From Holophagae bacterium (GTDB lineage: Bacteria; Acidobacteriota; Thermoanaerobaculia; Thermoanaerobaculales; Sulfomarinibacteraceae): a DNA stretch of 34,182 bases. Under the pieces are notes generated by a model. It had not been told where the DNA came from. It was given only the letters and a program-made list of their open reading frames with translations, and did not search any database. Both the position numbers and the translations under genes were made by a program. This document shows positions 11,696-34,098 of this stretch, in pieces (within the stretch, counting starts at the first letter, position 1; each line of letters begins with the position of its first letter). The stretch spans positions 1-34,182 of the forward strand of contig JAUXDC010000006.1 in the NCBI GenBank assembly GCA_030618605.1. The letters run 5' to 3'.

Positions 11696-12148
11696 TCACT
11701 CTCCCGGCGAAGAAATGACAGGGAGGGTAGAAATCCCCAGCGGGACGCGACCCTCCGGGCCGACCATGATGTCGGCGATGGTGGCTGCACCGAGGGCCTT
11801 CTCAATATCGGCCATGGCCTGGTCGAGTCTGCGGTGGAGGGGGCAGAGGCTGTCACGATGCTCCGGTAAATCGAGAGGACAGGAGAGGATTCGCTGCAAC
11901 GGATCGACGGCGTTGACGACGTCCAGGATCGAGATGGCCTCGGGCGACCTCTCCAGGGTGAAACCACCTCCCAGACCTCGCCGGGACTTCACCAGCCCCG
12001 CCTTGACCAGGGTCTGCATCACCTTGGCCAAGTAGTCGCCGGGGACCTGGGTCGCCTCGGCAATCTCGCGAGTGATACGCGGGTCGTCGGGACGCTTGGC
12101 CAGGTAGGCGATGGCGCGAAGAGCGTACTCAGCGGTTTGGGAAATCAT
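11696..12148 (-). CDS. Rrf2-family transcriptional regulator (possible NO/redox sensor)
   Basis: MISQTAEYALRAIAYLAKRP...ITREIAEATQVPGDYLAKVMQTLVKAGLVKSRRGLGGGFTL is a canonical Rrf2 N-terminus; Cys90/Cys102 in the Fe-S region; divergent from norZ. Confidence 0.9.
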   Translation of the reverse strand: MISQTAEYALRAIAYLAKRPDDPRITREIAEATQVPGDYLAKVMQTLVKAGLVKSRRGLGGGFTLERSPEAISILDVVNAVDPLQRILSCPLDLPEHRDSLCPLHRRLDQAMADIEKALGAATIADIMVGPEGRVPLGISTLPVISSPGE

Positions 12149-12459: not shown

Positions 12460-14715
12460 ATGATTTCATCGAGGAAAGTCTGGATTGCATTCTGGTCGGT
12501 CGTTGTGCTGTCGTTTGCGGTCTTGGGGTACTACGGCTACCAGATCTATCAGGAGGCGCCGCCGATCCCAGATCGTGTTGTGACAACTGATGGTGCGGTA
12601 ATTTTCACGGGAGACGACATTCGTACCGGCCAGCAGGTCTGGCAGTCGATCGGTGGGCACCAGTTGGGCTCGGTCTGGGGCCACGGCGCCTACGTGGCGC
12701 CCGATTGGTCGGCGGACTGGCTGCACCGTGAGCTGGTGGCCATGCTCGACCTGATGGCTCTCAGAAGCCACGGTCAAGAGTATGACCCGCTGACCCCCCC
12801 GCAGCAGGCTGCGCTTCGGGAGAGCCTGCGGTTGGATGTCAGAACCAACGGCTATGACAAGGCCAGCGGCGATCTGACGATTTCTGCGGTGCGGGCCGAG
12901 GCTGTCGGTCGAGTGGCCGGCCATTACGATGCCCTCTTCGGTGATGACGCTTCGCTCGACGAACTCCGCGAGGACTATGCCATGCGCAAGCCGACGATCG
13001 AGGACCCCGAGCGGCGTGCCTCGCTTCGTGCCTTCTTCTTCTGGACCTCGTGGGCCTGTTCCACCGACCGGCCGGGAACGGGAATCACCTACACCAACAA
13101 TTGGCCTGCCGAGGATTTGATCGACAACCGACCGACGACGGCGATTTTCATGTGGTCAATGATCAGCATCCTGGGGCTCCTGGCCGGCATCGGGGCACTG
13201 GTGTGGTACATGGCAGCCGGGAAAAAAGACGAAGAACACCTGGTTCCCGGCGAAGATCCCCTGTTGGGCCTCAAGCCGACGCCTTCGATGTTGGCGACAG
13301 TCAAGTATTTCTGGGTCGTAGCTGCGTTGATGGTTGTGCAGATCATCGTCGGCATCATTACAGCCCACTACGGAGTCGAGGGACAGGCGTTCTTCGGCAT
13401 TGAACTGGCCAAGTGGCTCCCCTACTCCGTCGCCCGAACCTGGCACGTTCAGCTGGGCATTTTCTGGATTGCCACGGCGTGGCTGGCGACCGGACTCTTC
13501 GTCGCGCCGGCTGTCGGCGGCAAAGAGCCGCCGTTCCAACGCCTTGGCGTCAACGTGCTCTTCGGCTCTCTGCTGGTGATCGTCGTCGGTTCCCTGGTTG
13601 GGGAATGGCTTGGCGTCATGCAGAAACTGGACCTCGGGACCAACTTCTGGTTCGGACACCAGGGTTACGAATACGTTGACCTGGGCCGCTTCTGGCAGAT
13701 TTATCTCTTTGCCGGCCTGTTCATCTGGCTCTTTCTGCTGATTCGCGCTCTGCTGCCGGCAATCAAGAGCGACAAGGAGAGCGGACCTCTGCTGAGGCTC
13801 TTCGCCGTTGCTTCGGCGGCCATTGCCCTCTTCTACGGCGCAGGCCTGATGTGGGGCAGCCACACGCCTTTGAGTATCGTCGAGTACTGGCGCTGGTGGG
13901 TTGTACACCTTTGGGTCGAGGGCTTCTTCGAGGTCTTCGCCACCGTCGTCATCGCGTTCCTCTTCGCCCGGATGGGCCTGGTGAGGGCGTCTACAGCAGG
14001 CAAGGCAGCGATCTTCTCCAGTACCATTTACCTGACCGGCGGCATCATCGGAACGATGCACCACCTCTACTTTGCCGGAACGCCGACCGGTGTCCTGGCG
14101 TGGGGCGCCGTGTTCTCGGCCCTGGAGATCGTGCCTCTGGTTCTGGTGGGCTTCGAGGCAGTTCAGAACTTGCGTGAAGCCAAGTCCGCCGAGTGGGTCA
14201 CGCACTACCGTTGGCCGATCTACTTCTTCGTCGCGGTGGCATTCTGGAATCTGATCGGGGCAGGGCTCTTTGGTTTCCTGATCAACCCGCCGCTCGCCCT
14301 CTACTACATGCAGGGCCTCAACCTGACGCCGCTCCACGGTCACACCGCGTTCTTCGGGGTATACGGGATGCTCGGCATCGGCCTGATGCTCTTCAGCCTG
14401 CGGGCCATGAACACTCAGGTGGTATGGAATACCAAGGTACTGCGCTTCTCGTTCTGGTCACTCAACATTGGTCTGGCCCTGATGGCCTTGATCTCCCTGT
14501 TGCCCATTGGATTGCTCCAGACCGTGGCCGCCGTTCAGCACGGCCTGTGGTACGCCAGGTCGGCCGAATTCATGCAGCAGGATTTGCTGCAGAATCTGCG
14601 CTGGCTACGAGTGGTCGGAGACGTAATCTTCTCACTCGGCATGGTCGGCATCGGTGTCTTCATCGCCGGCCTGACGACCGGATGGTCCGTCAAGGGCACT
14701 CGCCAGGACGGATAA
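12460..14715 (+). CDS. norZ: Nitric-oxide reductase large subunit, quinol-dependent single-subunit type (qNOR)
   Basis: 751 aa; N-terminal RVVTTDGAVIFTGDDIRTGQQVWQSIGGHQLGSVWGHGAYVAPDWSADWLHRE extension followed by NorB core (WWVVHLWVEGFFEVFATVVIA, GGIIGTMHHLYFAG, LHGHTAFFGVYGMLGIGLM). Confidence 0.93.
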   Translation: MISSRKVWIAFWSVVVLSFAVLGYYGYQIYQEAPPIPDRVVTTDGAVIFTGDDIRTGQQVWQSIGGHQLGSVWGHGAYVAPDWSADWLHRELVAMLDLMALRSHGQEYDPLTPPQQAALRESLRLDVRTNGYDKASGDLTISAVRAEAVGRVAGHYDALFGDDASLDELREDYAMRKPTIEDPERRASLRAFFFWTSWACSTDRPGTGITYTNNWPAEDLIDNRPTTAIFMWSMISILGLLAGIGALVWYMAAGKKDEEHLVPGEDPLLGLKPTPSMLATVKYFWVVAALMVVQIIVGIITAHYGVEGQAFFGIELAKWLPYSVARTWHVQLGIFWIATAWLATGLFVAPAVGGKEPPFQRLGVNVLFGSLLVIVVGSLVGEWLGVMQKLDLGTNFWFGHQGYEYVDLGRFWQIYLFAGLFIWLFLLIRALLPAIKSDKESGPLLRLFAVASAAIALFYGAGLMWGSHTPLSIVEYWRWWVVHLWVEGFFEVFATVVIAFLFARMGLVRASTAGKAAIFSSTIYLTGGIIGTMHHLYFAGTPTGVLAWGAVFSALEIVPLVLVGFEAVQNLREAKSAEWVTHYRWPIYFFVAVAFWNLIGAGLFGFLINPPLALYYMQGLNLTPLHGHTAFFGVYGMLGIGLMLFSLRAMNTQVVWNTKVLRFSFWSLNIGLALMALISLLPIGLLQTVAAVQHGLWYARSAEFMQQDLLQNLRWLRVVGDVIFSLGMVGIGVFIAGLTTGWSVKGTRQDG

Positions 14716-15190: not shown

Positions 15191-16132
15191 TCAGAAGATG
15201 ACTGCTGTGCTCCGCTGCTCCCGAAGTGACAAGTGAATTCCTCCTAACTGGGAAATCGGGTGTTTCCTCCTCAAATATCGGCCCTCTTCCCTCAGCCGAG
15301 CGAGCTGTTCCTGGATGAAACTCTCCGTGCCTATGGCCAGGCCATCAACGAAGTATCCCAGCCGCTTTCGGTACAAGCCTCGCGTGGCAAAGCCCCGGGC
15401 GATTTCCTGATCCACCACCTTCTCAGATATTGCCTTCTGCCCATCTTTCGTCGGTACGTTGCCCCGGTAGTACAACCGCTCCCGGAACTCGACCAGGGCC
15501 TCCTTCTTGGTCGGTTGATCAAGAAATCGCTTCAGCGGCGTCAACCATCCGTCCTTACCCAACTCCCGTACGGCCAGAGACGAACCCTTCCATTCTTCGG
15601 GTCGTTCCACCAGCCCCGCCCGGACAGGATTCAGCTCGACGTAGAGCATGCAATCGAGTACAGCCTGCTTATCGGCCAGGTAGACCGACTTGAAGCGATC
15701 GGCCCAGAAACGACCTCTTCTCTGATAGTTGCGATTGTACCAGCGGGCGAAACCAGCCTGGATGTTTCGCATGTACTCAGAGACGTCAAAAAGGCGTTGC
15801 CGGTAGTGTTCCCAATCCTCTTCCGACCACAACTCAATCTCGGCCTGAAATGCCCGGCTCGGATACATCAGGCGGGTCCTGGTCCGAAGCTCTTCCCGCG
15901 TGACCTCTCGAAGACGATCGAATTTGACGACTAAGTGATAGTGGTTGCCAACGATACAATAGGCCGCCACCTCGCAGAAGTAGACAGCCGAAAAGTGCTC
16001 GATGGTTTGTATCAACCGACGCGTCGGAACAGCCTCTGACAAAGGATAAACACCCTTGTGAGCCGCAATTCGACTGCAAAGGTGGTACCACGCATCGGTT
16101 TCGGTGTATTTCATTCTGCCAATTCGAGGCAT
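15191..16132 (-). CDS. REP-associated tyrosine transposase (Y1_Tnp, RAYT)
   Basis: YCIVGNHYHLVVKF (HUH motif), YMRNIQAGFARWYNRNYQRRGRFWADRFKS, YVELNPVRAGLVERPEEWKGSS, all hallmark RAYT text. Confidence 0.92.
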   Translation of the reverse strand: MPRIGRMKYTETDAWYHLCSRIAAHKGVYPLSEAVPTRRLIQTIEHFSAVYFCEVAAYCIVGNHYHLVVKFDRLREVTREELRTRTRLMYPSRAFQAEIELWSEEDWEHYRQRLFDVSEYMRNIQAGFARWYNRNYQRRGRFWADRFKSVYLADKQAVLDCMLYVELNPVRAGLVERPEEWKGSSLAVRELGKDGWLTPLKRFLDQPTKKEALVEFRERLYYRGNVPTKDGQKAISEKVVDQEIARGFATRGLYRKRLGYFVDGLAIGTESFIQEQLARLREEGRYLRRKHPISQLGGIHLSLREQRSTAVIF

Positions 16133-16196: not shown

Positions 16197-16272
16197 TGGC
16201 AAGAGCTTGATAGTGTCCCCTGTAATTTTTGTAATTTTTGTGGCAAGAGCTTGATAGTGTCCCCTGTAATTT
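16197..16272. repeat. Direct repeat pair of 32-bp motif TGGCAAGAGCTTGATAGTGTCCCCTGTAATTT (16197-16228 and 16241-16272)
   Basis: Two identical 32-bp copies at a 44-bp period just upstream of the RAYT gene start. Confidence 0.9.
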
Positions 16273-16455
16273 CAAGGGTTCAAGGTGGAGGTCTGAGGGC
16301 GTTGGACGCTTGATCGTCGGTGGAGACAGCCCCGTGACTTTCGTCATCGTGGTCATTTGCTCCGAATCGGTCCTCGACAGTGGTAGGATCAGACTGATGG
16401 GGAAAAGGAAATCACTATCCCTTCCATCTGTGATATCTACGCCGGTCCTCCAGCA

Positions 16456-18816
16456 TTAGAAACCCTGGTGTTCGGTCCGTGTGATGATCTCTTCCTGCAA
16501 GGCTTCTGAGAGGTCGCAGAAGTAATCCGAGTAGCCGGCAACGCGGACGATGAGGTCGCGGTATTCGCCGGGAGCGGCCTGGGCTGCACGCAACTGTTTG
16601 GCGGTGACAACGTTGAATTGCAGATGGTGTCCGTCCATCTTGAAATAAGAACGCACCAGTTGACCGAGGCGATTGATTCCCTCGTCTCCCGCCAATAACT
16701 CTGGTGTGAATTTCATATTGAGCAACGTGCCGCCGGTTCGAACATGATCCATCTTTGCCGCCGACTTCAAGACGGCCGTCGGGCCGTTACGATCTGCTCC
16801 CTGGACTGGGGAAATGCCCTCGGACAGGGGCAATCCAGCATTTCTGCCGTCCGGCGTCGCGCCGCAGACCGAACCAAAGTAGATGTGACATGTGGTCGGT
16901 AACATTTCAATGCGGTAGGCGCCGCCTTTGCTGTTGGGTCGTCCGTCGATCGCCGCGAAGCCGGCTTCAAAGACCCGCACCATCAGTTCATCGGCCTCCT
17001 CGATATCGTTACCGTACTTGGGCATGCGGTGCAGCAGGCGCTGACGCAGTACGTCCTGGCCGGTGAAGTTACCAGCGAGAATAGCGACCAGTTCATTGAG
17101 CTGCATCGTGTGATCGTCGAAGACCAGGCGTTTGATCGCGGCAAGGCTGTCGGTGATTGAGCCGATGCCGACGGCCTGGATGAAAGAGTTGTTGTACCGT
17201 GCGCCGCCTTCGTTGTAATCGCGGGCCGTCACAATGCAGTCGTCGATCAGGACCGACAAAAAAGGCGCAGGCATGTCGGCGGCGTAGAGCTGTTCAATAA
17301 TTTGATTGCCGCGAATCTTGATATCGACCTGGTACTTAAGCTGCTCGTTTAATGCGGCAAAAAACTCATCAAAGGTCTCGAAGTTCGCCGCTGTACCAGT
17401 CCGGGGGCCAAGCCGAGTGCGGGTAACGGGGTCAATGCCGTCGTTCAGGCTCAGTTCGAGGATTTTGACCAGGTTGAAATATCCCGTCAGGATGTAGGCT
17501 TCTTTGCCAAACGCACCGACTTCGACGCAACCGCTGCATCCACCGGCTCTGGCATCGGCGAAGGTTTTCCCCTGGCGTACCTGTTCTTCGACAACAGCAT
17601 CGGCGTTGAAGATCGATGGAAACCCATAACCTTTACGAACGACACGCAGGGTGTGATCAAGAATATTGTCGGGCGTCTTGCGTGAAAGCTGCATATTTGA
17701 ACTTGGTTGCAGCAGGTGCATTTCATCGATGATGTCAAGCAGCAGGTGGGTGATCTCGTTCGAGCCGTCAGAACCATCGTGCAGCAGACCGCCAAGGTTG
17801 ATGTTGGCGAAGTCGGTGTAGGTACCTGACTCGGCAGCAGTCACGCCGACCTTGGGCGGGGCTGGATGGTTGTTGAACTTGACGAAGAAACACTCGAGCA
17901 GTTCGCGTGCTCCATTCTCAGTCAGTGTTGATACAGCCATGTCCTTTTCGTAGAAAGGCAGCAGATGTTGGTCGAGGTGGCCCGGATTGAAGGCGTCCCA
18001 GCCGTTGAGTTCGGAAATGACGCCGATATGGCAGAACCAGTAGTACTGCAGGGCCTCCCACATGTTCCGCGGCGCGTGGGCAGGCACCCGCCTGCAGATC
18101 TCGGCGATCTGCAGGAGCTCGAGCCGGCGCTTCTCAGTGGCAGCAGCTTCGGCCCGGGCTTCGGCGAGTTCGGCATAGCGTTGTGCATACAGCATGAGGG
18201 CGTCACAGCTGATGTCCATAGCGTTGAGTTGTTCGGCCTTGTCGAGGGCGTTGATGTCGGTGGTGAAGTCGAGGTTTGCCCGGGACTGGTTGATATCGGC
18301 TTTGAAATCGATAAAGCCCTTGCTGTAGATTTTGCCGTCGAGCACGGTATGCCCTGGAGCGCGCTGTTCCATGAACTCGGTGAATACACCGGCGTCATAC
18401 GAATTCTGCCACTGCTCAGGAAGCAAATTGAACATGCGGTCGCGCAGGGTGCGGCCCCTCCAATATGGAATCACAGTCTTTTCGTAGGCGCTGATAACCT
18501 GTTCAGGAACCCGGTACCAGGTCTTGGCCCGAGAGTTGAGGATGCGTAGATCTTCGAGAGAGTGGCAGGTCAGCTCGGGATAGGTCGGGGTTGCTTTCGG
18601 GGCAGGTCCCCGCTCTCCGACGATCAACTCGTCGTCGCCGAGCCAGAGGCTCTTGTGCCGGCACAGGTGTTCAAAAGCGAGAGCTCGCATCACCGGAGTC
18701 GCGTATTTCCCGTGATTTTCTTCATAGAATCCGGTCATCAGCTCGGCTCGTTCCGATGAAATACAAGGCACAGCGTCGAGGCTTTCTTGTCGAAGTCTTT
18801 CGGTTCGTTCATTCAT
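16456..18816 (-). CDS. hypD: Glycyl radical enzyme, trans-4-hydroxy-L-proline dehydratase-type
   Basis: Active-site Cys loop GGCSGCVEVGAFGKEAYILTGYFN, C-terminal glycyl radical site VRVAGYSDYF, extensive GRE text (MEQRAPGHTV, FNNHPAPPKVGVTAAESGTYTDFANINLGG, MLPTTCHIYFGSVCGATPDGR, GISPVQGADRNGPTAVLKSAAKMDH). ATG at 18816 with SD GGAGG at 18824-18828; the listed 18822 start is a TTG. Confidence 0.8.
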   Translation of the reverse strand: MNERTERLRQESLDAVPCISSERAELMTGFYEENHGKYATPVMRALAFEHLCRHKSLWLGDDELIVGERGPAPKATPTYPELTCHSLEDLRILNSRAKTWYRVPEQVISAYEKTVIPYWRGRTLRDRMFNLLPEQWQNSYDAGVFTEFMEQRAPGHTVLDGKIYSKGFIDFKADINQSRANLDFTTDINALDKAEQLNAMDISCDALMLYAQRYAELAEARAEAAATEKRRLELLQIAEICRRVPAHAPRNMWEALQYYWFCHIGVISELNGWDAFNPGHLDQHLLPFYEKDMAVSTLTENGARELLECFFVKFNNHPAPPKVGVTAAESGTYTDFANINLGGLLHDGSDGSNEITHLLLDIIDEMHLLQPSSNMQLSRKTPDNILDHTLRVVRKGYGFPSIFNADAVVEEQVRQGKTFADARAGGCSGCVEVGAFGKEAYILTGYFNLVKILELSLNDGIDPVTRTRLGPRTGTAANFETFDEFFAALNEQLKYQVDIKIRGNQIIEQLYAADMPAPFLSVLIDDCIVTARDYNEGGARYNNSFIQAVGIGSITDSLAAIKRLVFDDHTMQLNELVAILAGNFTGQDVLRQRLLHRMPKYGNDIEEADELMVRVFEAGFAAIDGRPNSKGGAYRIEMLPTTCHIYFGSVCGATPDGRNAGLPLSEGISPVQGADRNGPTAVLKSAAKMDHVRTGGTLLNMKFTPELLAGDEGINRLGQLVRSYFKMDGHHLQFNVVTAKQLRAAQAAPGEYRDLIVRVAGYSDYFCDLSEALQEEIITRTEHQGF

Positions 18817-18818
18817 TT

Positions 18819-19727
18819 TCAACCTCCAATGACAACCTCTGAGGCGGCGTCTGACAACTGCGCTGCAATTTCCCGCATTCGTTGATCTGAAGGCGGCGAA
18901 ACCAGGTTCAAGTCATAATTTTTGTTGATATTCAGATGTTTGCTGACGCCCGTCTCGTGATAGGGCAAGAGACAGATTTTTTCGATGCATGACGCGCCAG
19001 ATGCCAGTTCGAGAACCGATGCCAGATTCTGATCCGTGTCGGTCAATCCGGGGATGACCGGGAGTCGCAACCAGATGCGCTGCTGCTGCCCGATCAGCGC
19101 GTCGAGGTTTTCGAGAATCGGTTCAAGGGGTGCACCGAGATGGCGGAGATGCCCATCAGAGTCAAGAATCTTGAGATCAAAGAGCACCAGATCGGTCAGC
19201 TCAGCGGCGTGAAGCAGTTTGTCGCGGGCGCCAAAGCCACACGTGTCGAGGGTCGTATGCACACCCTCGGACCGGCACGCTTGAAGGCAGGCTATCAGGA
19301 AGTCGGGCTGGCAGAGGGGTTCACCGCCCGAAAACGTCACACCGCCTTCTGCACTGTCGTAGAAGATCCGGTCTCGCAGCACCATTGATCGAACCTCGTC
19401 GACGGTCCAGGTTCGGCCGACCATCTCCCGTGCCCCGGTCGGGCAGACCTCGGCACAAAGACCACACCGTGCGCAGTTTTCCAAAGTATGGTCGCCCGCG
19501 CACGTCGAGCAGGCTTCAATACAGCTTCCGCAGTTCATGCACCGGGTTTTGCTGAGAACGATCTGCGGCGCGGCGGAAATACCTTCGGGGTTGTGGCACC
19601 AGGGGCAGCGAAGAGGACAGCCTTTGAAGAAAACTGTAGTCCGGATGCCGGGCCCATCTTCGATGCAGAATCGCTGCACGTTGAAAATGATGCCGCTCGC
19701 TTTTAAGGGCTGAGAAAAGGCCAGCAT
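18819..19727 (-). CDS. hypE: Glycyl-radical enzyme activating enzyme (radical SAM)
   Basis: CPLRCPWC (CX3CX2C radical SAM), two ferredoxin-type motifs CMNCGSCIEAC and CARCGLCAEVCP, GGVTFSGGEP; immediately upstream of the GRE gene. Confidence 0.9.
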   Translation of the reverse strand: MLAFSQPLKASGIIFNVQRFCIEDGPGIRTTVFFKGCPLRCPWCHNPEGISAAPQIVLSKTRCMNCGSCIEACSTCAGDHTLENCARCGLCAEVCPTGAREMVGRTWTVDEVRSMVLRDRIFYDSAEGGVTFSGGEPLCQPDFLIACLQACRSEGVHTTLDTCGFGARDKLLHAAELTDLVLFDLKILDSDGHLRHLGAPLEPILENLDALIGQQQRIWLRLPVIPGLTDTDQNLASVLELASGASCIEKICLLPYHETGVSKHLNINKNYDLNLVSPPSDQRMREIAAQLSDAASEVVIGG

Positions 19728-19829
19728 TCCCCCTCCGCTTCAGATGATAGACCTTTGATCGGCTGACGTCTTGTATGATTCGAGAGCGTGCACTTGTCAA
19801 AGCGCACAAACCATCTGGTAGGTGTCGTT

Positions 19830-20564
19830 ATGGAACATTCGGAATTGCTCACTGCGGCTGGGGCCGCCTCTTTTGTAGAGGACCTGTTTGACCGTATTCC
19901 CGACGTCGTCTTTTTCCTGAAAGATCAACGAGGGCGATACGTCGTCGTCAACCATTCCTTGGTAGAGCGATGCCGAGCAGCCGACAAATCCGAATTGATC
20001 GGTCGCACTGCCGCCGAGGTATTTCCCCGTCCTCTCGGTCAGCGCTACCTGAAGCAGGATCTCAACGTCTGCACGACTGGAAATCCGGTCAGCGGCCGGC
20101 TCGAACTGCATCTCTATCCAGGTGGGCGGGAGGGCTGGTGTCTCACCGACAAGGTTCCGATCCTCTCGGCGGGGGAGGAGATCATCGGGCTCGCAGGTGT
20201 TTCACGAGACCTTCGGGTCACCGCTGCCGGCGCCGATGATCTCGATGATGTGGCCCGGGCTGTCACGTTCCTGCAGGCCAACTTCGATGAGTCCATCAGT
20301 GCCGATGACCTCGCCAGACGGGCCGGCATGTCGGTCTACCAATTGACTCGACGTATCAGGTCGATCTACGGCATCACACCGGCTCAGCTGCTCAATACGA
20401 CCCGGATCGACATGGCCTCTCGCCTGTTGCGTACAACAAACGCTCCAATAAGCGAGATCGCCCAGCGTTGCGGTTTTTTTGACCAGAGCGCCTTTACGCG
20501 TAGTTTCAAGGCTGCTGCGGGTCTGACACCGAGCCAGTACCGAGAACGTCACGCTGCGGCGTGA
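19830..20564 (+). CDS. PAS-domain AraC-family transcriptional regulator, divergent from hypED
   Basis: N-terminal PAS (VEDLFDRIPDVVFFLKDQRGRYVVVNHSLVERC..IGRTAAEVFP), C-terminal AraC HTH (RIDMASRLLRTTNAPISEIAQRCGFFDQSAFTRSFKAAAGLTPSQYRE). Confidence 0.88.
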   Translation: MEHSELLTAAGAASFVEDLFDRIPDVVFFLKDQRGRYVVVNHSLVERCRAADKSELIGRTAAEVFPRPLGQRYLKQDLNVCTTGNPVSGRLELHLYPGGREGWCLTDKVPILSAGEEIIGLAGVSRDLRVTAAGADDLDDVARAVTFLQANFDESISADDLARRAGMSVYQLTRRIRSIYGITPAQLLNTTRIDMASRLLRTTNAPISEIAQRCGFFDQSAFTRSFKAAAGLTPSQYRERHAAA

Positions 20565-20632
20565 GCGGCGGCAGGGATAGAGAGCGTGTATTCGGGATTC
20601 GAGCCGGAGCCCATGGGCGGGTGGAGGAGATC

Positions 20633-21934
20633 TCAGCCCGTGACCTCTCCCAGCACGTTGTCGAAACTCTCCACCGTCGCGTCAACATCCTCGGCACTCA
20701 AAACCATCGGCGGTTTAATCTTGATGACGTTGTGATCCGGACCGTCGGTGGACAGCAGGAAACCACGTCCTTTCATCAGGTCGACCACCCGATCAGCGGC
20801 CCCGGCTGCGGGTTCCCGGCTTTCAAGATCCGTCACAAGCTCCACACCAAGAAACAAACCCAAGCCGCGCACATCGCCGATAAGCTCGTGGCGAGCAGCA
20901 AGCTCATCAAGTCCAGCCTTGAATCGTTTCCCCAGCTCATGGGCACGCGCCTGCAACCTCTCGCCTTCGATGACTTCGAGCACTGCCAGGCCGATCGCGC
21001 ACGACACCGGATTGCCGCCGAATGTATTGAAATACTCCATGCCGGTGTCGAATGACGCTGCAATTTCCGGTGTTGTGACAACGGCGGCCAGTGGGTGGCC
21101 GTTGCCGATCGGCTTGCCCAGGGTAACGATATCCGGGACAACGCCGTGGGATTCGAAAGCCCAGAGGTGGGTGCCGACCCGCCCGAATCCCACCTGCACC
21201 TCATCGGCAATGACGACACCGCCGGCCTCTCGGACGGCGGCGTAGGCTCTTTCGAAGAATCCGGAGGGTGGAACGATCTGGCCACCGCACCCGAGCAGCG
21301 ACTCGGCGAGGAACGCTCCGACACGCTTCCCTGTGCCTTGGATGACCTCTACGGCCTGTGCAACATCTTCCGCATATCGCTCACCGGAGTCCTCGCCGCG
21401 GTATGGGCCACGATAAGGATCCGGACAGCTCACTTTGTGTGCGTGGTCGGCCAAGCCCTCGCCACCGGGCCCTTCACACTTGTAGGTCCCGATCTCGATC
21501 AGGGACGGTGAGTGGCCGTGATACGCGTGCTCGAGGACGATGATCTCCCGGCTTTGTGTGTGTGCACGGGCAAGCCGCAACGCAAGATCGTTGGCTTCGG
21601 TACCGGTACACACAAGAAAACACACTGAAAGCGGTTCCGGCAGCCGATCGGTGAGCTGGAGAAGGTACTCTGCCAGATGATCGTGAAGATAGCGGGTGTT
21701 GGTATTGAGCAGGCCCATCTGACGCCGACCCGCCTCGACAACGTGCGGATGGCAATGGCCCACGTGGCAGACATTGTTGACGAGGTCCAGGTATCGGTTG
21801 CCAACCTCGTCAAAGAGGTACTGGCCCTCCCCTCGCACGATCTTCAAGGGTTCCCGATACGAAAGACTCAGATTGCGGCCGAGATGCCGGCGGCGAATGG
21901 TGGAAATCTCTTCATTCGAGTGTTGCATGACCAA
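20633..21934 (-). CDS. Class III PLP enzyme, ethanolamine-phosphate / 5-phosphohydroxylysine phospholyase-like
   Basis: [69 protein letters not shown] Lys in [21 protein letters not shown] resemble animal ETNPPL/PHYKPL (AGXT2L1/2). Confidence 0.8.
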
Positions 21935-21956
21935 ATACCTCCACGCTGTCCGACTT

Positions 21957-22928
21957 TCACACGAGACGTCGAAGCACTCTCCTTGCAGGTTCTTCGCTGA
22001 TCGTCAGATACTCGTCGTCGGGACTGACGGTCCGGCCCTGCGCCGCCATGACCGCAGTCGTGCAAAGCCGCGCCAACGCCAGGTCGGGCAAGAGTTCCCG
22101 CTCCAGGTCCGTGAGCGGCAAGACCTCCTCGTACCCAACTCGCAGATCCTCGGCCGCGGAGATCGGATCAGCGGCGGCCATCATCAGGTACGCCGTTGCA
22201 ATCGCCAGGTCGGCAACGGTGATCGTGAAGACGAGGTCCCCGAAGTCGATCAGTCCGGAGATGGACGATCGGCCATCGTGTTCAGAAACCAGAATATTGT
22301 AGTCGTTGGCGTCGTTGTGAACGATGCTGCGGCGAAGCTGCTCGAGTTCCGGCGCCACCCGTCGTTCGAACCGATTCATGACCTCGTCGAAGATCGGTCC
22401 GATCTCGTCGTCGGCATGCTGGCGGTACCGCCGAATCAGAGGGAAGGCCACAAGGTCCCACATGTGGTGCCGATGAGCTCCCGGGTGGTCGAACTCCAAA
22501 AGGTGTTGGTCGAGCGTGGCGAGTAATCCTCCGAGTTCGGTTCTCATCTCAGGCCCGGGGTCTCCGATACAGGCGATCGGCCGACCCTCGAGATAGCTGA
22601 CCACCCGAACGCAGCTGCGCTCATCCGGCCCGACGTCGATCTCTGCCACAAGGTCTCCGCCACGTGTTGGACGAACCCTCGGGACCATCCCGCCGACCGT
22701 CGAGTCCCGCAGAAAACGCAGCACCTCGACCTGGCATGCGATTTCTTCGGAGTCTTCCCCGATGTTGGCGATCTTCAGGACCCAACGCCCCTGCTCGCCG
22801 CAATCGAGCAGAAAGTTCCGGTCGACGTCACCTGGAAGAGGCGAGATTTCGCCGTGCAATCCGTACACTTCTTTGGCCCAGTGCACGGCCCGCGATGGAG
22901 AGACGTCGACTTTCAGCGGTCGTACCAT
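21957..22928 (-). CDS. APH-fold phosphotransferase, hydroxylysine kinase (HYKK)-like
   Basis: [50 protein letters not shown] (Brenner HxDxxxxN plus DFGD); located next to the PHYKPL-like gene. Confidence 0.75.
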
Positions 22929-22940
22929 GCGCCTTCGACC

Positions 22941-23213
22941 TCAGGCCGACCAGAGATTGCGGGGATACACACCGTTTTCAACCAATTTCACCAAACGATC
23001 TTCGACGATCTTTCGGTCCCCGGGCGAGGTCATGCCGAACCATTCGGACTCGCATGACAAAATACTGACCCGGGCCGCACCCGCAACCATAGCGTCACTC
23101 ACAGCGTCCGGAAGCAGAAACTCGGACTGATCGGAAGGCGCCGTTCCCAAGAACTTTTCGAAACCGCCTTCGAGCATGCCCATGAAAGAGCCTGTGAATC
23201 CCCATAAATTCAT
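22941..23213 (-). pseudogene. C-terminal remnant of a sugar-phosphate nucleotidyltransferase-like protein
   Basis: MNLWGFTGSFMGMLEGGFEKFLGTAPSDQSEFLLPDAVSDAMVAGAARVSILSCESEWFGMTSPGDRKIVEDRLVKLVENGVYPRNLW resembles the C-terminal part of nucleotidyltransferases; N-terminal catalytic region is absent. Confidence 0.5.
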
Positions 23214-23313
23214 CGGCGTTGGCCACGGCGGCTGTGATGTCGGCCGCCGAGGACACCGGGATGTTGGTGATCAATTCTTCCGTCGCGGGATTGATATCTG
23301 GAAACGTCGTCAT
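23214..23313 (-). pseudogene. N-terminal remnant (~33 aa) of an aldehyde dehydrogenase
   Basis: ATG at 23313: MTTFPDINPATEELITNIPVSSAADITAAVANA is a typical ALDH start (INPATEE); the frame then enters out-of-frame nucleotidyltransferase sequence. Confidence 0.6.
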
Positions 23314-29440: not shown

Positions 29441-29530
29441 GATGGATTATTAACTCGACAGGATCGCCGCCCAGTCCTTATTCTGTCAAGAACTTAGGTC
29501 TCAGTCCAATGGGTGACGGGAGATTCCTTG

Positions 29531-30673
29531 ATGCAGGTCGATCCAAACGATATTTTCACGCTTGGGACAATGATGGTGGGCCTTGCTTGCCTCGGCTTTT
29601 GTGTTGACCAGCACCCCATCGGTCGCAAGACGTCCGGTGTCATCTGGGTGCTCGGTGGCGCCATGTTGCTCTCGAACTTCAAGATCGTGCCCTTCCAGGC
29701 TCCTGCGTACAGCTTTGTCGGCAATACCTTGGTCCCCCTGGCCATCCCACTGCTCCTATTCAAGGCCGACGTGAGACGTATCTTTCGTGAGAGTGGGCGG
29801 GTGATGGTGACTTTTGGCATCGCTAGCCTGGCGACCATAGTGGGTGCGGTGTTGGGTCACTTCTTGTTGAATCTGGGTGAGATCGGCCCCAAGGTCGCGG
29901 GAGTATACACCGGGGCCTACATCGGAGGCGCCGTCAATCTTCTCGCCGTCTCCGAAGCAGTCTCCATGACCGAAACCGAGTTCAGTGGAACCATCAGCGC
30001 CAGTTCTGTGGTCAGCATTCTCGCGTTGATGATGCTCGTTGCACTCTCGTCAGCAAAGTGGTTGTTGAAGAGAATCCCATCCGTCCACATGGATGATCAC
30101 AACGCCGACGAAAGCAGCGCAATGGGCCCGACAGCTGCTCCCAAGTTCCTGGTAACCCACATCTCCTTTGTTCTGGCGTTGAGCTTTCTGATCTGCGCGG
30201 CGGCGGAACATGTCGGTGATCTGCTGGGAATGCCGAACTACAGAATTCTCCTCATTACGTTGCTTGCCGTGCTGATCGCCAACCTCATTCCTAGCGTGAT
30301 GCAGAAGCTGCAAGGCGAACTCGAGCTCGGCATGTTTTTCATGTACATATTCTTCGCCGCCGTGGGCGCCGGGACAGACGCCCTTCAGTTTGTGGAGACA
30401 GCTCCGTTGTTGTTCATATACGGCATGATCATCATCACGGTACACCTTGCGTTGGTGCTGGCGACCGCCCGCCTATTCAAGATTGATTTGGCCGAGGCGA
30501 TGGTCGCCTCCGGAGCGGCACTCGTGGGGCCAAGCGTGACCGCCGCAATCGCCGCGTCTCGTGGTTGGAGGTCCCTTGTGACGCCGGCGATCATGTGCGG
30601 AATCTTCGGCTATGCGATCGCCACCTTCCTGGGCTATGCGCTCTACCTCATCCTCTCTGGTGGGGCTTTCTAG
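29531..30673 (+). CDS. DUF819-family multi-TM membrane protein (putative transporter)
   Basis: ~10 hydrophobic segments; FVGNTLVPLAIPLLLFKADVRRIFRESGR, GVYTGAYIGGAVNLLAVSEAV; ATG at 29531 with GGGAG SD. Confidence 0.82.
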   Translation: MQVDPNDIFTLGTMMVGLACLGFCVDQHPIGRKTSGVIWVLGGAMLLSNFKIVPFQAPAYSFVGNTLVPLAIPLLLFKADVRRIFRESGRVMVTFGIASLATIVGAVLGHFLLNLGEIGPKVAGVYTGAYIGGAVNLLAVSEAVSMTETEFSGTISASSVVSILALMMLVALSSAKWLLKRIPSVHMDDHNADESSAMGPTAAPKFLVTHISFVLALSFLICAAAEHVGDLLGMPNYRILLITLLAVLIANLIPSVMQKLQGELELGMFFMYIFFAAVGAGTDALQFVETAPLLFIYGMIIITVHLALVLATARLFKIDLAEAMVASGAALVGPSVTAAIAASRGWRSLVTPAIMCGIFGYAIATFLGYALYLILSGGAF

Positions 30674-30675
30674 CA

Positions 30676-31788
30676 ATGGTCACTCGCCTAGGGTCGGTCG
30701 CCCTCGACAAGGCTCGACACTATCTCAGGGTGGCAAACGTCGAATACGCAGATCTGTTTGAGTTGTCGGAGGGAGCCAATCACCAGGTGTTCGAGGTTGC
30801 GCTGAATCGTCAACCGAGTCTGATCCTGAAGTTCAGCCAAGGTGAGGACAGGGCGCTGAGCAAGAAGGATCCCCTCTTCGGCGGTGAAGTCTCTCTGCGG
30901 CGTGAGCTCAGAATCTATCGAGCCCTTGAAAAGAAAACGAGCCTCCGAACGCCTGAGATCTTGGCAACAGATGGCGAATACTACGTGTTGATGGAGAAAA
31001 TCGCCGGCCAGCTCTGGTACGAATTCATGGCCTCGAACGACAACTCTGAGACGTGCTTCCTGAACTCGATGGCTTCTCTAGGTAAGGTCTTCGCTGAGCT
31101 CCACCATGTGACGTTTCAGAGCTTCGGAGACTTCTTGTCCGAAGCGAGCGTTGGACCCCAGAGAAAAAACTACGCCAAGAGATTTGTCGACGTTCTGAAC
31201 TACAGATTGGAGAACGCCCTCGACAAAGGCGCCCTATTGAAGCAGGAGTCGAACGATATCCATTCGGCTGTATTGAGGTGCCTTGAGCAGTACCGGGGCC
31301 AGCTCGACGCTGAAGTGGCGCCTGCGGTCATCGTCTTGGATGACATGCACCCGGCGAATTTCTTTGTCGACGAGTCAGGAAACGCTGAGGGTTTCTTCGA
31401 CATCGAGTTTACCCAGACCGCGCACCCAAGCCTCGAGTACTACTCCCTTTGCATCTTCCTGTTCAACTACCTGGGCGGGGGGGGCTTCACCAAGGCCAAG
31501 AAGGCCTTTGATGATTCCTATCGCGAAGCCGGAGGTCCGTGTGGACTGGATGCCCCGATCTTTGCCGAGCTCACCTGGCTGTCTGCAGTCTCGAGGTATG
31601 TTGAGCTTTGCTGTTCCTATCACGGCGTAGTGGACGGCCTCAGAGACGATTGGAGCCCTCGGTTCAAGAAGACGGTGCTCGAATGGATAAGGACGGGCCG
31701 GGTCGATTACCTGTCCGCCGGCGACATGCAAAGGGAGAAGTCCCACTGGCTGTTGGAACAGAGGCAGCGAGAGCGGAGAAACAAATGA
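30676..31788 (+). CDS. APH-fold small-molecule kinase (MtnK/methylthioribose kinase-like)
   Basis: EGANHQVFEVALNRQPSLILKFSQ, VIVLDDMHPANFFVDESGNAEGFFDIEFTQTAHPSLEY; ATG at 30676 three nt after the DUF819 stop. Confidence 0.72.
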   Translation: MVTRLGSVALDKARHYLRVANVEYADLFELSEGANHQVFEVALNRQPSLILKFSQGEDRALSKKDPLFGGEVSLRRELRIYRALEKKTSLRTPEILATDGEYYVLMEKIAGQLWYEFMASNDNSETCFLNSMASLGKVFAELHHVTFQSFGDFLSEASVGPQRKNYAKRFVDVLNYRLENALDKGALLKQESNDIHSAVLRCLEQYRGQLDAEVAPAVIVLDDMHPANFFVDESGNAEGFFDIEFTQTAHPSLEYYSLCIFLFNYLGGGGFTKAKKAFDDSYREAGGPCGLDAPIFAELTWLSAVSRYVELCCSYHGVVDGLRDDWSPRFKKTVLEWIRTGRVDYLSAGDMQREKSHWLLEQRQRERRNK

Positions 31789-32477
31789 AGCAGATCAAGA
31801 TTGCGGCCGGGTTGGCACACGTGGACTACGGGCGGATGGCGGATATTGTCACTGAAGCCACCGACGCGGGCGTGGACATTATTCACTGCGATGCCGCCGA
31901 CATGACGGACCTGAAGAACATGCAGCTTATGGGCGGACACCAGGTCATCTCTGGGATCAGACCCCACACGACGTTGCCCATCGAATGCCACGCCTACGTG
32001 AGGGAGGCGGACGTCTTCTTTGTAGACCAGATAGCCAAGTCCGGCGCCAACTCCCTGATTCTCCCCGCGGAGCAGTACCTTGGCGCGGATGGAGCGTACA
32101 TTCTGAGGCGGTGCAGAGATCACGGGATCAGCTTCGGTTTCACGATCGGGTGTTTCGCTCCGTTGTCGTTCGTCGAAGAGGCGGTGTACGAGCTGGATCG
32201 CCTCCACATTGTGGTGCACGGCGTCAACAACGACGACTGGACGTGGCGGGAGACAGCCATACCACTGATTCGAAACGCACGAGCGTTGATTGAAAAGAGA
32301 AACCCGAGATGCGAACTGGCCGTAGACGGGGGCATCAGGGCCTCCAACCTCGCGAAGTTGGTCAACGAGGACATCGACGTGTTGGTCGCGTCCTCCGCCA
32401 TCTTCAAACATGAGGAAGGAATTCGGGCAGGTGTCCTCGAACTCAAGGAGGCTATAGACAGAGCCATACTTTCCTAG
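31785..32477 (+). CDS. Ribulose-phosphate 3-epimerase-like TIM-barrel epimerase
   Basis: MKQIKIAAGLAHVDYGRMADIVTEATDAGVDIIHCDAADM, ECHAYV, FTIGCFAP, VHGVNN, LAVDGGIRASNLAKL: RPE-type metal/catalytic H-D-H-D positions appear conserved. ATGA overlap with the upstream kinase stop. Confidence 0.8.
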   Translation: MKQIKIAAGLAHVDYGRMADIVTEATDAGVDIIHCDAADMTDLKNMQLMGGHQVISGIRPHTTLPIECHAYVREADVFFVDQIAKSGANSLILPAEQYLGADGAYILRRCRDHGISFGFTIGCFAPLSFVEEAVYELDRLHIVVHGVNNDDWTWRETAIPLIRNARALIEKRNPRCELAVDGGIRASNLAKLVNEDIDVLVASSAIFKHEEGIRAGVLELKEAIDRAILS

Positions 32478-32684
32478 GCCAGGGATTTCTCGCACCCCGA
32501 CCAGGCGCAACCAATAGTGATTTGCTTTTTCCAACCTGCTCCAACTTGGTTATGCAATTCGTGGAGTTCTCGTACATATCTCCAAAAACGAACCGATATG
32601 GCACCGATACCGATACGGCAAGGACGGATCAATACCAAGGATTTCCGGCGCACAACAGTAGAATGCGCCTGAAGGAGTACTACC

Positions 32685-33776
32685 ATGACCGTATATGAAC
32701 ACCGCCGAAGAGCACTGGATACAAATGTAACCTTCGCAGGGTATCTGGTGGTCGATCTGGCGCGACTGATGCCCAAGGAGATCGACCACACCAGCCTGTT
32801 TTTTCTCACCGGGTACCAGGGCGAGGGGGTACTCTTCATTACCCCAGCGGAGTCTGTGCTTTTGGCGGACGAGCGCTACTTCGAGGCGGCGAAAGCCAGT
32901 GTCGGCCATGACCTGGTGGTCCATCAGGCTGCGGGCGACTACCTGGCGAACATCAAGGAAGAGGTCGAACGGCTTGGCCTCTCTGAGCTGTCATTTACCT
33001 CCAACCGCATCACCTACTCCCTCTACAATCGACTGCGGCAGCTGCTCGACATCGACCTGACGCCTTGTGAGGATCCCATCGCCGGGCTGAGAATGAAAAA
33101 GGACTCTGAGGAGATCGGGCGAATCGAGGCTGCGGTTAAAATCTCGGAAACCTGCCTGCACCGTCTCGTCGAAGAAATTCGAGTCGGCATGACCGAGAAA
33201 CAGATCGCCTCACGCCTGGACATCCTGATGTTGGAAAACGGAGTGGGACCAGCGTTCGAAACCATTGTCGCAGCCGGCGAGAATAGCTTCAATCAGCATC
33301 ACCAACCATCGGACCGACCCATCAACGCGGGGGAGTTTCTCTTGATCGATTTTGGTGCGAGAAAGGACGAGTATCTCGCCGACATCACGAGGACCTTTGC
33401 CGTGGGCGCCGCTACACCCAAAATGCAGGCCATTCACAACACTGCCCGCGGGGCCACCGAGCTTGGCACTGAGTTGTTGCGGCCGGGAACACCCATCAAA
33501 GATGTGTGGCAGGCTCTCAAAAACTACTTCGATCAGACCGAATATGGGCCTCATAGCGAGATCTCCGGCCATTGCATCGGCCTCGATGTGCACGAAAGAC
33601 CTTTCATCCTGGCCGATGATGCGCTCGAGCTGCAACCGGGCATGGTGACCACCATGGAACCGGGCATCTACATCCAGGGCTATGGGGGAGTGCGCATCGA
33701 GGACGACGTGCTGATTACGCCCAACGGGCCGCGGGCGCTGAGCACCTTCCCGAGGGACCTGATCGTCGTCGGCTGA
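32685..33776 (+). CDS. M24-family Xaa-Pro aminopeptidase/dipeptidase
   Basis: M24 metal ligands: LLIDFGARKDEYLADITRTFAVG (D, D), SGHCIGLDVHERPF (H), TTMEPGIYI (E), GVRIEDDVLIT (E); SD GAAGGAG upstream. Confidence 0.92.
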   Translation: MTVYEHRRRALDTNVTFAGYLVVDLARLMPKEIDHTSLFFLTGYQGEGVLFITPAESVLLADERYFEAAKASVGHDLVVHQAAGDYLANIKEEVERLGLSELSFTSNRITYSLYNRLRQLLDIDLTPCEDPIAGLRMKKDSEEIGRIEAAVKISETCLHRLVEEIRVGMTEKQIASRLDILMLENGVGPAFETIVAAGENSFNQHHQPSDRPINAGEFLLIDFGARKDEYLADITRTFAVGAATPKMQAIHNTARGATELGTELLRPGTPIKDVWQALKNYFDQTEYGPHSEISGHCIGLDVHERPFILADDALELQPGMVTTMEPGIYIQGYGGVRIEDDVLITPNGPRALSTFPRDLIVVG

Positions 33777-33896: not shown

Positions 33897-34064
33897 TTCC
33901 CACACGCCCCTCACCTGGTCGTAGACTGCCTGGACGAGCCAATACAGGGGCGTCTCTTGTGGCTTGCCCCTCCGGAAAACGCGCCGAGCGGGGGGGGAGC
34001 CTGCGCGACCCCGAAGGCCGCAGGACGGCTGCCACGTGTAGCATTGGGGTATTGTGGACCCCAA
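33882..34064 (-). pseudogene. Truncated N-terminal fragment of an IS91-like transposase
   Basis: RRGKPQETPLYWLVQAVYDQVRGVWEARAE resembles the N-terminal segment preceding the zinc-binding domain of IS91-type transposases; ORF ends inside the 33868-33896 motif. Confidence 0.4.
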
Positions 34065-34098
34065 GCAGCCGAACCTAATGCCCCAATGCTAAACGTGG
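34032..34098. repeat. Large imperfect palindrome, 22-bp arms, 23-nt loop
   Basis: CCACGTGTAGCATTGGGGTATT (34032-34053) versus AATGCCCCAATGCTAAACGTGG (34077-34098): 20 of 22 Watson-Crick complementary positions. Confidence 0.85.

What the first reader, a model, noticed from the sequence alone, without database searches (positions are those of the whole stretch)
16456..23313. Candidate catabolic island for hydroxylated collagen-type amino acids (hydroxyproline plus possibly hydroxylysine)
Seen: hypD/hypE-like GRE and activase, a divergent PAS-AraC regulator, then on the same strand as hypED a PHYKPL/ETNPPL-like phospholyase with an adjacent HYKK-like APH-fold kinase, and an ALDH N-terminal remnant upstream. 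Established: HypD dehydrates trans-4-hydroxyproline to pyrroline-5-carboxylate; animal HYKK phosphorylates 5-hydroxylysine, PHYKPL eliminates phosphate/ammonia to give 2-aminoadipate semialdehyde, which an ALDH would oxidise. Inference: pairing both hydroxy-amino-acid routes in one bacterial locus would be a collagen scavenging module. The phospholyase family also acts on phosphoethanolamine, so hydroxylysine is only one candidate substrate. No P5C reductase is present in the window.
Basis: partly seen in the sequence, partly recalled or inferred. Interest (0 to 1): 0.82.

Follow-up and report, generated by a model that had tools for sequence, protein, structure and literature searches.

The report
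Hydroxyproline dehydratase beside unrelated kinase–phospholyase
An uncultured acidobacterium carries a standard oxygen-sensitive enzyme pair for breaking down hydroxyproline next to a widespread bacterial kinase/phospholyase pair, but comparison with relatives shows that the two are chance neighbours and not a collagen-eating gene island.

Summary
HypD passes the curated family cut-off and keeps all ten tested catalytic and binding residues of C. difficile HypD. HypE and a divergent PAS-AraC regulator form a recurrent hypE-hypD/araC unit in Thermoanaerobaculia (Acidobacteriota). The kinase and class-III PLP enzyme belong with the known bacterial kinase-(M23)-phospholyase type (PRK06148/NF004799); [quoted passage not shown]

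The "island" does not hold. HypD and phospholyase lie together only in this window. They co-occur in 7 of 149 genomes of the class against 5.6 expected (p = 0.31), on different contigs in the other six. Their trees disagree: the phospholyase groups with its own family, HypD with the neighbouring family. The "ALDH remnant" is about 38 codons of an ALDH start joined to the last 90 codons of a nucleotidyltransferase, a rearrangement scar. Only 1 of 90 phospholyase loci has an ALDH-like gene nearby.

Most likely there are two independent units: anaerobic hydroxyproline dehydration to P5C (proC lies elsewhere in the genome), and an amino-alcohol kinase/phospholyase. Hydroxylysine versus ethanolamine was not decidable here. 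New members of known kinds; low interest.

The parts
16456..18822 (-). hypD: trans-4-hydroxy-L-proline dehydratase, glycyl radical enzyme
   Evidence: NF043068 above cut-off; 6vxc best hit, ungapped over 781 residues; H158, D276, S332, D337, F338, C432, E434, Y448, T643, G763 match the ten key C. difficile residues (PMC7077986)
18819..19727 (-). hypE: radical-SAM glycyl-radical activase
   Evidence: TIGR02494 above cut-off, NF043069 full length but below its cut-off; adjacent to hypD in every HypD locus with enough flanking sequence
19788..20564 (+). PAS-AraC regulator, divergent from hypE, likely regulator of hypED
   Evidence: PAS_4 + HTH_18; 50-57% identical relative divergent next to hypE in eight other HypD loci
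20633..21934 (-). PLP-dependent phospholyase of the ETNPPL/PHYKPL type (class-III aminotransferase fold)
   Evidence: 6tor 489 bits, 5g4i 314 bits, next best (a decarboxylase) 198 bits; Schiff-base lysine K274 by alignment; NF004799 C-terminal part 668 bits
21957..22928 (-). APH-fold small-molecule kinase paired with the phospholyase
   Evidence: PF01636 E 1.8e-25; NF004799 N-terminal part 259 bits; HNDANDYN at 204 and DFGD at 228; kinase next to or fused with the phospholyase in all 81 loci where it can be seen
22941..23213 (-). C-terminal 90 codons of a nucleotidyltransferase gene (remnant)
   Evidence: 51% identical to the C-terminus of an intact roughly 300-aa NTP_transferase in G008
23203..23313 (-). 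about 38-codon N-terminal remnant of an aldehyde dehydrogenase gene, joined to the nucleotidyltransferase remnant
   Evidence: PF00171 positions 4-53 at E 2.6e-4 only; sequence

Best explanation
The stretch holds two independent catabolic units that happen to be neighbours. Unit 1 is hypE-hypD with a divergent PAS-AraC regulator. Under anoxic conditions the activase places a glycyl radical on Gly763 of HypD, a thiyl radical at Cys432 attacks trans-4-hydroxy-L-proline, and water is eliminated to give P5C; ProC encoded elsewhere can reduce P5C to proline, or it can be oxidised. Unit 2 is an APH-fold kinase that phosphorylates the hydroxyl of a small amino alcohol, after which the PLP enzyme eliminates phosphate and ammonia to give an aldehyde. 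Its substrate is most likely ethanolamine or 5-hydroxylysine (my weights are about 40% and 35%, other 25%). The 'ALDH' is a rearrangement scar and takes no part. Shown here: family membership, catalytic residues, kinase-phospholyase pairing, and the absence of linkage between the units in relatives. Inferred: activities, regulator target and substrate of unit 2.
For: HypD cut-off and ten of ten residues (PMC7077986). hypE-hypD adjacency and recurrent divergent AraC. Phospholyase nearest to the two solved phospholyases. Kinase paired in 81 of 81 assessable loci, mostly as one fused protein. HypD and phospholyase share a locus only in the window. Class-wide co-occurrence 7 of 149, 5.6 expected, Fisher p = 0.31, and none of the other six has both on one contig. 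The phospholyase tree places the window with its own family f1 plus one f6 genome (98/97), while HypD groups with family f2 plus one f1 genome (97/96). In relative G004 a scar keeps only the last 21 codons of hypD and last 44 of araC, with no kinase or phospholyase on that stretch. The ALDH is a scar.
Against: Within the window's family and sister family together, co-occurrence is 6 against about 3.6 expected (p = 0.05), so a weak shared ecology is not excluded. Genomes are fragmented MAGs, so linkage beyond contig ends can be missed. The activase misses the strict HypD-activase cut-off. Activities are inferred from sequence.
Confidence: 0.82

Rival explanations
1. Collagen-type scavenging island: HypD handles hydroxyproline while the kinase and phospholyase handle 5-hydroxylysine, co-regulated by the PAS-AraC protein.
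For: Both units lie within 6.5 kb on one strand. The bacterial kinase is of the APH type, as is animal hydroxylysine kinase (recalled, not tested). Slight co-occurrence excess in the two nearest families, p = 0.05. M24 prolidase-like and tricorn-type peptidases lie nearby.
Against: No second linked case in 85 phospholyase loci or the HypD loci. Class-wide co-occurrence at chance. Discordant trees. ALDH is a scar and ALDH-like genes were not found near 89 of 90 phospholyase loci. No M9 collagenase match in this genome. araC recurs with hypE without the kinase/phospholyase.
Confidence: 0.06
2. The kinase/phospholyase pair is an ethanolamine scavenger: ethanolamine to phosphoethanolamine to acetaldehyde, phosphate and ammonia. 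(This concerns the substrate of unit 2 and is compatible with the best explanation.)
For: Closest solved structure is ethanolamine-phosphate phospho-lyase, 489 bits, and the next, 5g4i, is also a phospholyase. Spread over Acidobacteriota, Gemmatimonadota, Marinimicrobia, Bacteroidota, Chloroflexota and Planctomycetota fits a ubiquitous substrate.
Against: No sequence of the phosphohydroxylysine enzyme was available for comparison, so nearness to the ethanolamine enzyme may only reflect which structures have been solved. The kinase is PF01636, with no hit to solved structures. No recurrent ethanolamine genes seen beside it.
Confidence: 0.4
3. The contig is chimeric, with the 16-34 kb part joined wrongly to the NorB region or at the 23.2 kb junction.
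For: The part beyond NorB has no near-identical counterpart in congeners apart from dispersed repeats. Two truncated genes are joined at 23.2 kb.
Against: A dispersed repeat at 16273-16424 and another near 33964-34021 are typical of this genus, so both ends of the stretch carry genus-specific sequence. The phospholyase groups with the window's own family.
Confidence: 0.12

Closest known systems
trans-4-hydroxy-L-proline dehydratase HypD and activase (C. difficile, 6vxc; NF043068)
   Same: Full-length ungapped alignment, CXE motif, Gly loop, all ten tested active-site residues, activase gene adjacent
   Different: Acidobacteriota host; divergent PAS-AraC regulator; proC not linked; activase divergent from the curated HypD-activase model
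PRK06148/NF004799 kinase-M23-class-III PLP fusion proteins
   Same: Kinase and PLP parts match its two ends; closest relatives in the same family are kinase-PLP fusions
   Different: Window version is split into two genes and lacks the M23 part
Ethanolamine-phosphate phospho-lyase (6tor), bacterial phospholyase (5g4i) and animal phosphohydroxylysine lyase
   Same: Conserved NNVxHVGH and GKPxGNGHP motifs and PLP lysine shared with the two solved phospholyases
   Different: Substrate untested; the animal hydroxylysine pair was not available for comparison

Membership tests
HypD (trans-4-hydroxy-L-proline dehydratase) | Score above the curated equivalog cut-off | tested here: met
   1214 against 1100 bits
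HypD (trans-4-hydroxy-L-proline dehydratase) | Catalytic and binding residues H160, D278, S334, D339, F340, C434, E436, Y450, T645, G765 | tested here: met
   10 of 10 identical (residues from PMC7077986)
HypD (trans-4-hydroxy-L-proline dehydratase) | Adjacent radical-SAM activase | tested here: met
   TIGR02494 above cut-off; stricter NF043069 cut-off not met (315 against 425)
HypD (trans-4-hydroxy-L-proline dehydratase) | Converts hydroxyproline to P5C | not testable with these tools
   needs an anaerobic assay
Kinase-phospholyase pair (PRK06148-like) | Kinase and PLP parts both present, fused or adjacent | tested here: met
   259 and 668 bits to the two ends of NF004799; 81 of 81 assessable loci paired
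NF004799 kinase-M23-PLP fusion subfamily proper | Whole-protein curated cut-off of NF004799 (1128 bits) | tested here: not met
   split genes without the M23 part cannot reach it; related to, not a member of, this fusion subfamily
Ethanolamine-phosphate/phosphohydroxylysine phospho-lyase | Closer to known phospholyases than to other class-III PLP enzymes | tested here: met
   489 and 314 against 198 bits or less
Ethanolamine-phosphate/phosphohydroxylysine phospho-lyase | Substrate | not testable with these tools
   no sequence marker that separates the two substrates was available
Hydroxylysine catabolic route (kinase, phospholyase, aldehyde dehydrogenase) | Linked intact aldehyde dehydrogenase | tested here: not met
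   about 38-codon remnant joined to another gene; ALDH-like ORF near 1 of 90 loci
Collagen module | Conserved linkage of HypD with kinase/phospholyase | tested here: not met
   only the window; 7 of 149 genomes with both, p = 0.31

The most novel reading that the evidence does not exclude
In this lineage a recent rearrangement brought a hydroxylysine kinase/phospholyase next to hypED, and both are now used on collagen-type amino acids under the PAS-AraC regulator.
Probability: 0.05. Interest if true: 0.55.

Novelty: new member of a known kind. Interest (0 to 1): 0.2.

Why it matters
It extends a well-supported HypD with a recurrent PAS-AraC regulator to Thermoanaerobaculia, so some Acidobacteriota are candidate hydroxyproline users without oxygen. 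It also shows that the bacterial kinase-phospholyase is always paired but has no stable genomic partner beyond that, so its substrate is an open question that one enzyme assay would settle. The proposed collagen island itself does not stand.

Tried and rejected
Collagen island: rejected on linkage, co-occurrence and discordant trees. ALDH as third step: rejected, scar. Substrate from neighbourhood: neighbours of the kinase-phospholyase are lineage-specific (topoisomerase, DprA, beta-galactosidase, HlyD-type efflux protein, PALP-fold enzyme), no metabolic theme. M9 collagenase in the genome: none found. Kinase against solved structures: no hit. Literature on bacterial hydroxylysine kinase or phospholyase: nothing useful held; the 2012 paper on hydroxylysine kinase and the two phospholyases is not in the library. 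Promoter and terminator scans: at shuffle level, uninformative. Structure prediction was not run, because it would not separate the candidate substrates.

Full report
What is there. The window is a contig of a fragmented genome (G000, 3.8 Mb, 396 contigs). Its nearest named matches are Thermoanaerobaculia, Acidobacteriota. HypD at 16456-18822 (-) passes the curated equivalog model with 1214 bits against a cut-off of 1100 and aligns without gaps over 781 residues to C. difficile HypD, 6vxc. I mapped ten residues studied in PMC7077986 (His160, Asp278, Ser334, Asp339, Phe340, Cys434, Glu436, Tyr450, Thr645, Gly765); all ten are identical.

HypE at 18819-19727 overlaps the hypD start and is a glycyl-radical activase by TIGR02494. 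It misses the stricter HypD-activase cut-off (315 against 425 bits). Relatives of it sit beside HypD in the other HypD loci at 42-52% identity, so I read it as the cognate activase of a divergent lineage. The PAS-AraC gene at 19788-20564 is divergent from hypE and has relatives at 50-57% identity in the same place in eight other HypD loci. It is not found in four loci with ample flanking sequence (L063, L066, L068, L071). It is therefore a recurrent but not universal companion of hypED.

The kinase and phospholyase. The PLP enzyme at 20633-21934 is closest to human ethanolamine-phosphate phospho-lyase (489 bits) and a bacterial phospholyase (314 bits); the next solved class is dialkylglycine decarboxylase with 198 bits. 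The kinase at 21957-22928 has the APH domain and its motifs. Both match the two ends of the kinase-M23-aminotransferase model NF004799. In 85 non-redundant loci from many phyla the kinase is next to or fused with the phospholyase in 81. In the other four (L113, L120, L132, L151) the phospholyase lies close to a contig end and the kinase would be off the contig. Fifty-five are long fusions (the one tested by domain search has APH, M23 and aminotransferase parts), eleven are short fusions without the middle part, fifteen are split. In the tree the window pair lies among short forms, next to a split pair from another family and then to fused forms of its own family (98/97).

Are the two halves one system? 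In the 149 genomes held for the class, HypD is in 26 and the phospholyase in 32, and 7 have both; 5.6 are expected and Fisher's test gives p = 0.31. In the two nearest families alone it is 6 of 37 genomes (p = 0.05), without correction for relatedness. In the six genomes other than the window's own with both, they are on different contigs, and no fetched locus other than the window has both. The phospholyase of the window groups with its own family. Its HypD groups with the neighbouring family and away from most HypD of its own. In genome G004 a scar retains the last 21 codons of hypD and the last 44 of araC with the whole middle deleted and no kinase or phospholyase on that stretch, so the hypED-araC block has its own history of gain and loss.

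The ALDH. The frame from 23313 reads as an ALDH start for about 38 codons. The next frame, 22941-23213, matches the C-terminus of intact proteins at up to 51%; I confirmed one of these as NTP_transferase. Two unrelated truncated genes are joined here. A motif scan for ALDH-like ORFs in 90 phospholyase loci found one, on the opposite strand 2.9 kb away.

How it most likely works. HypED dehydrates hydroxyproline to P5C by the published radical route (PMC7077986); the residues for it are present, the activity is inferred. The kinase and phospholyase most likely phosphorylate an amino alcohol and then eliminate phosphate and ammonia to an aldehyde. The fixed pairing supports this two-step chemistry. 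The substrate stays open between ethanolamine, hydroxylysine and others. That animals use an APH-type kinase for hydroxylysine is recalled knowledge, not tested. No M9 collagenase was found in this genome; other collagenase families were not searched.

Verdict. Two ordinary members of known kinds, side by side. Interest is low for the island; the remaining open point of value is the substrate of the bacterial kinase-phospholyase.

Noticed in passing
window 15191-16132 (-) and 16273-16424: A REP-associated tyrosine transposase-like gene (NF047646 55 bits, below its cut-off of 80) lies next to a roughly 150-bp sequence found at many places in the genomes G000-G004 at 70-94% identity; likely a dispersed element of this genus and a close relative.
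   Followed up: partly
window 33964-34021: A second, roughly 57-bp sequence dispersed many times through genomes of the same genus, next to a 22-nt inverted repeat at 34032-34098.
   Followed up: no
window 16197-16272: Two perfect 32-nt direct repeats 44 nt apart, between the transposase gene and the dispersed element.
   Followed up: no
L078:8108-11266 and 56 similar fusion proteins: The M23 part of the kinase-M23-phospholyase fusions keeps its metal motifs (H481, D485, H572, H574 in L078) in 56 or all 57 of 57 proteins, so it looks like a working peptidase domain inside a small-molecule enzyme; its role is unexplained.
   Followed up: partly
L191:11461-11679 (G004): Deletion scar that joins the last 44 codons of araC to the last 21 codons of hypD.
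   Followed up: yes
window 12460-14715 (+) and 11696-12148 (-): NorB-type nitric oxide reductase next to an Rrf2 regulator, with 92-97% identical NorB in two congeners.
   Followed up: no
window 29513-33776 (+): DUF819 protein, a second APH-fold kinase, a ribulose-phosphate epimerase family protein and an M24 prolidase-like peptidase on one strand.
   Followed up: no
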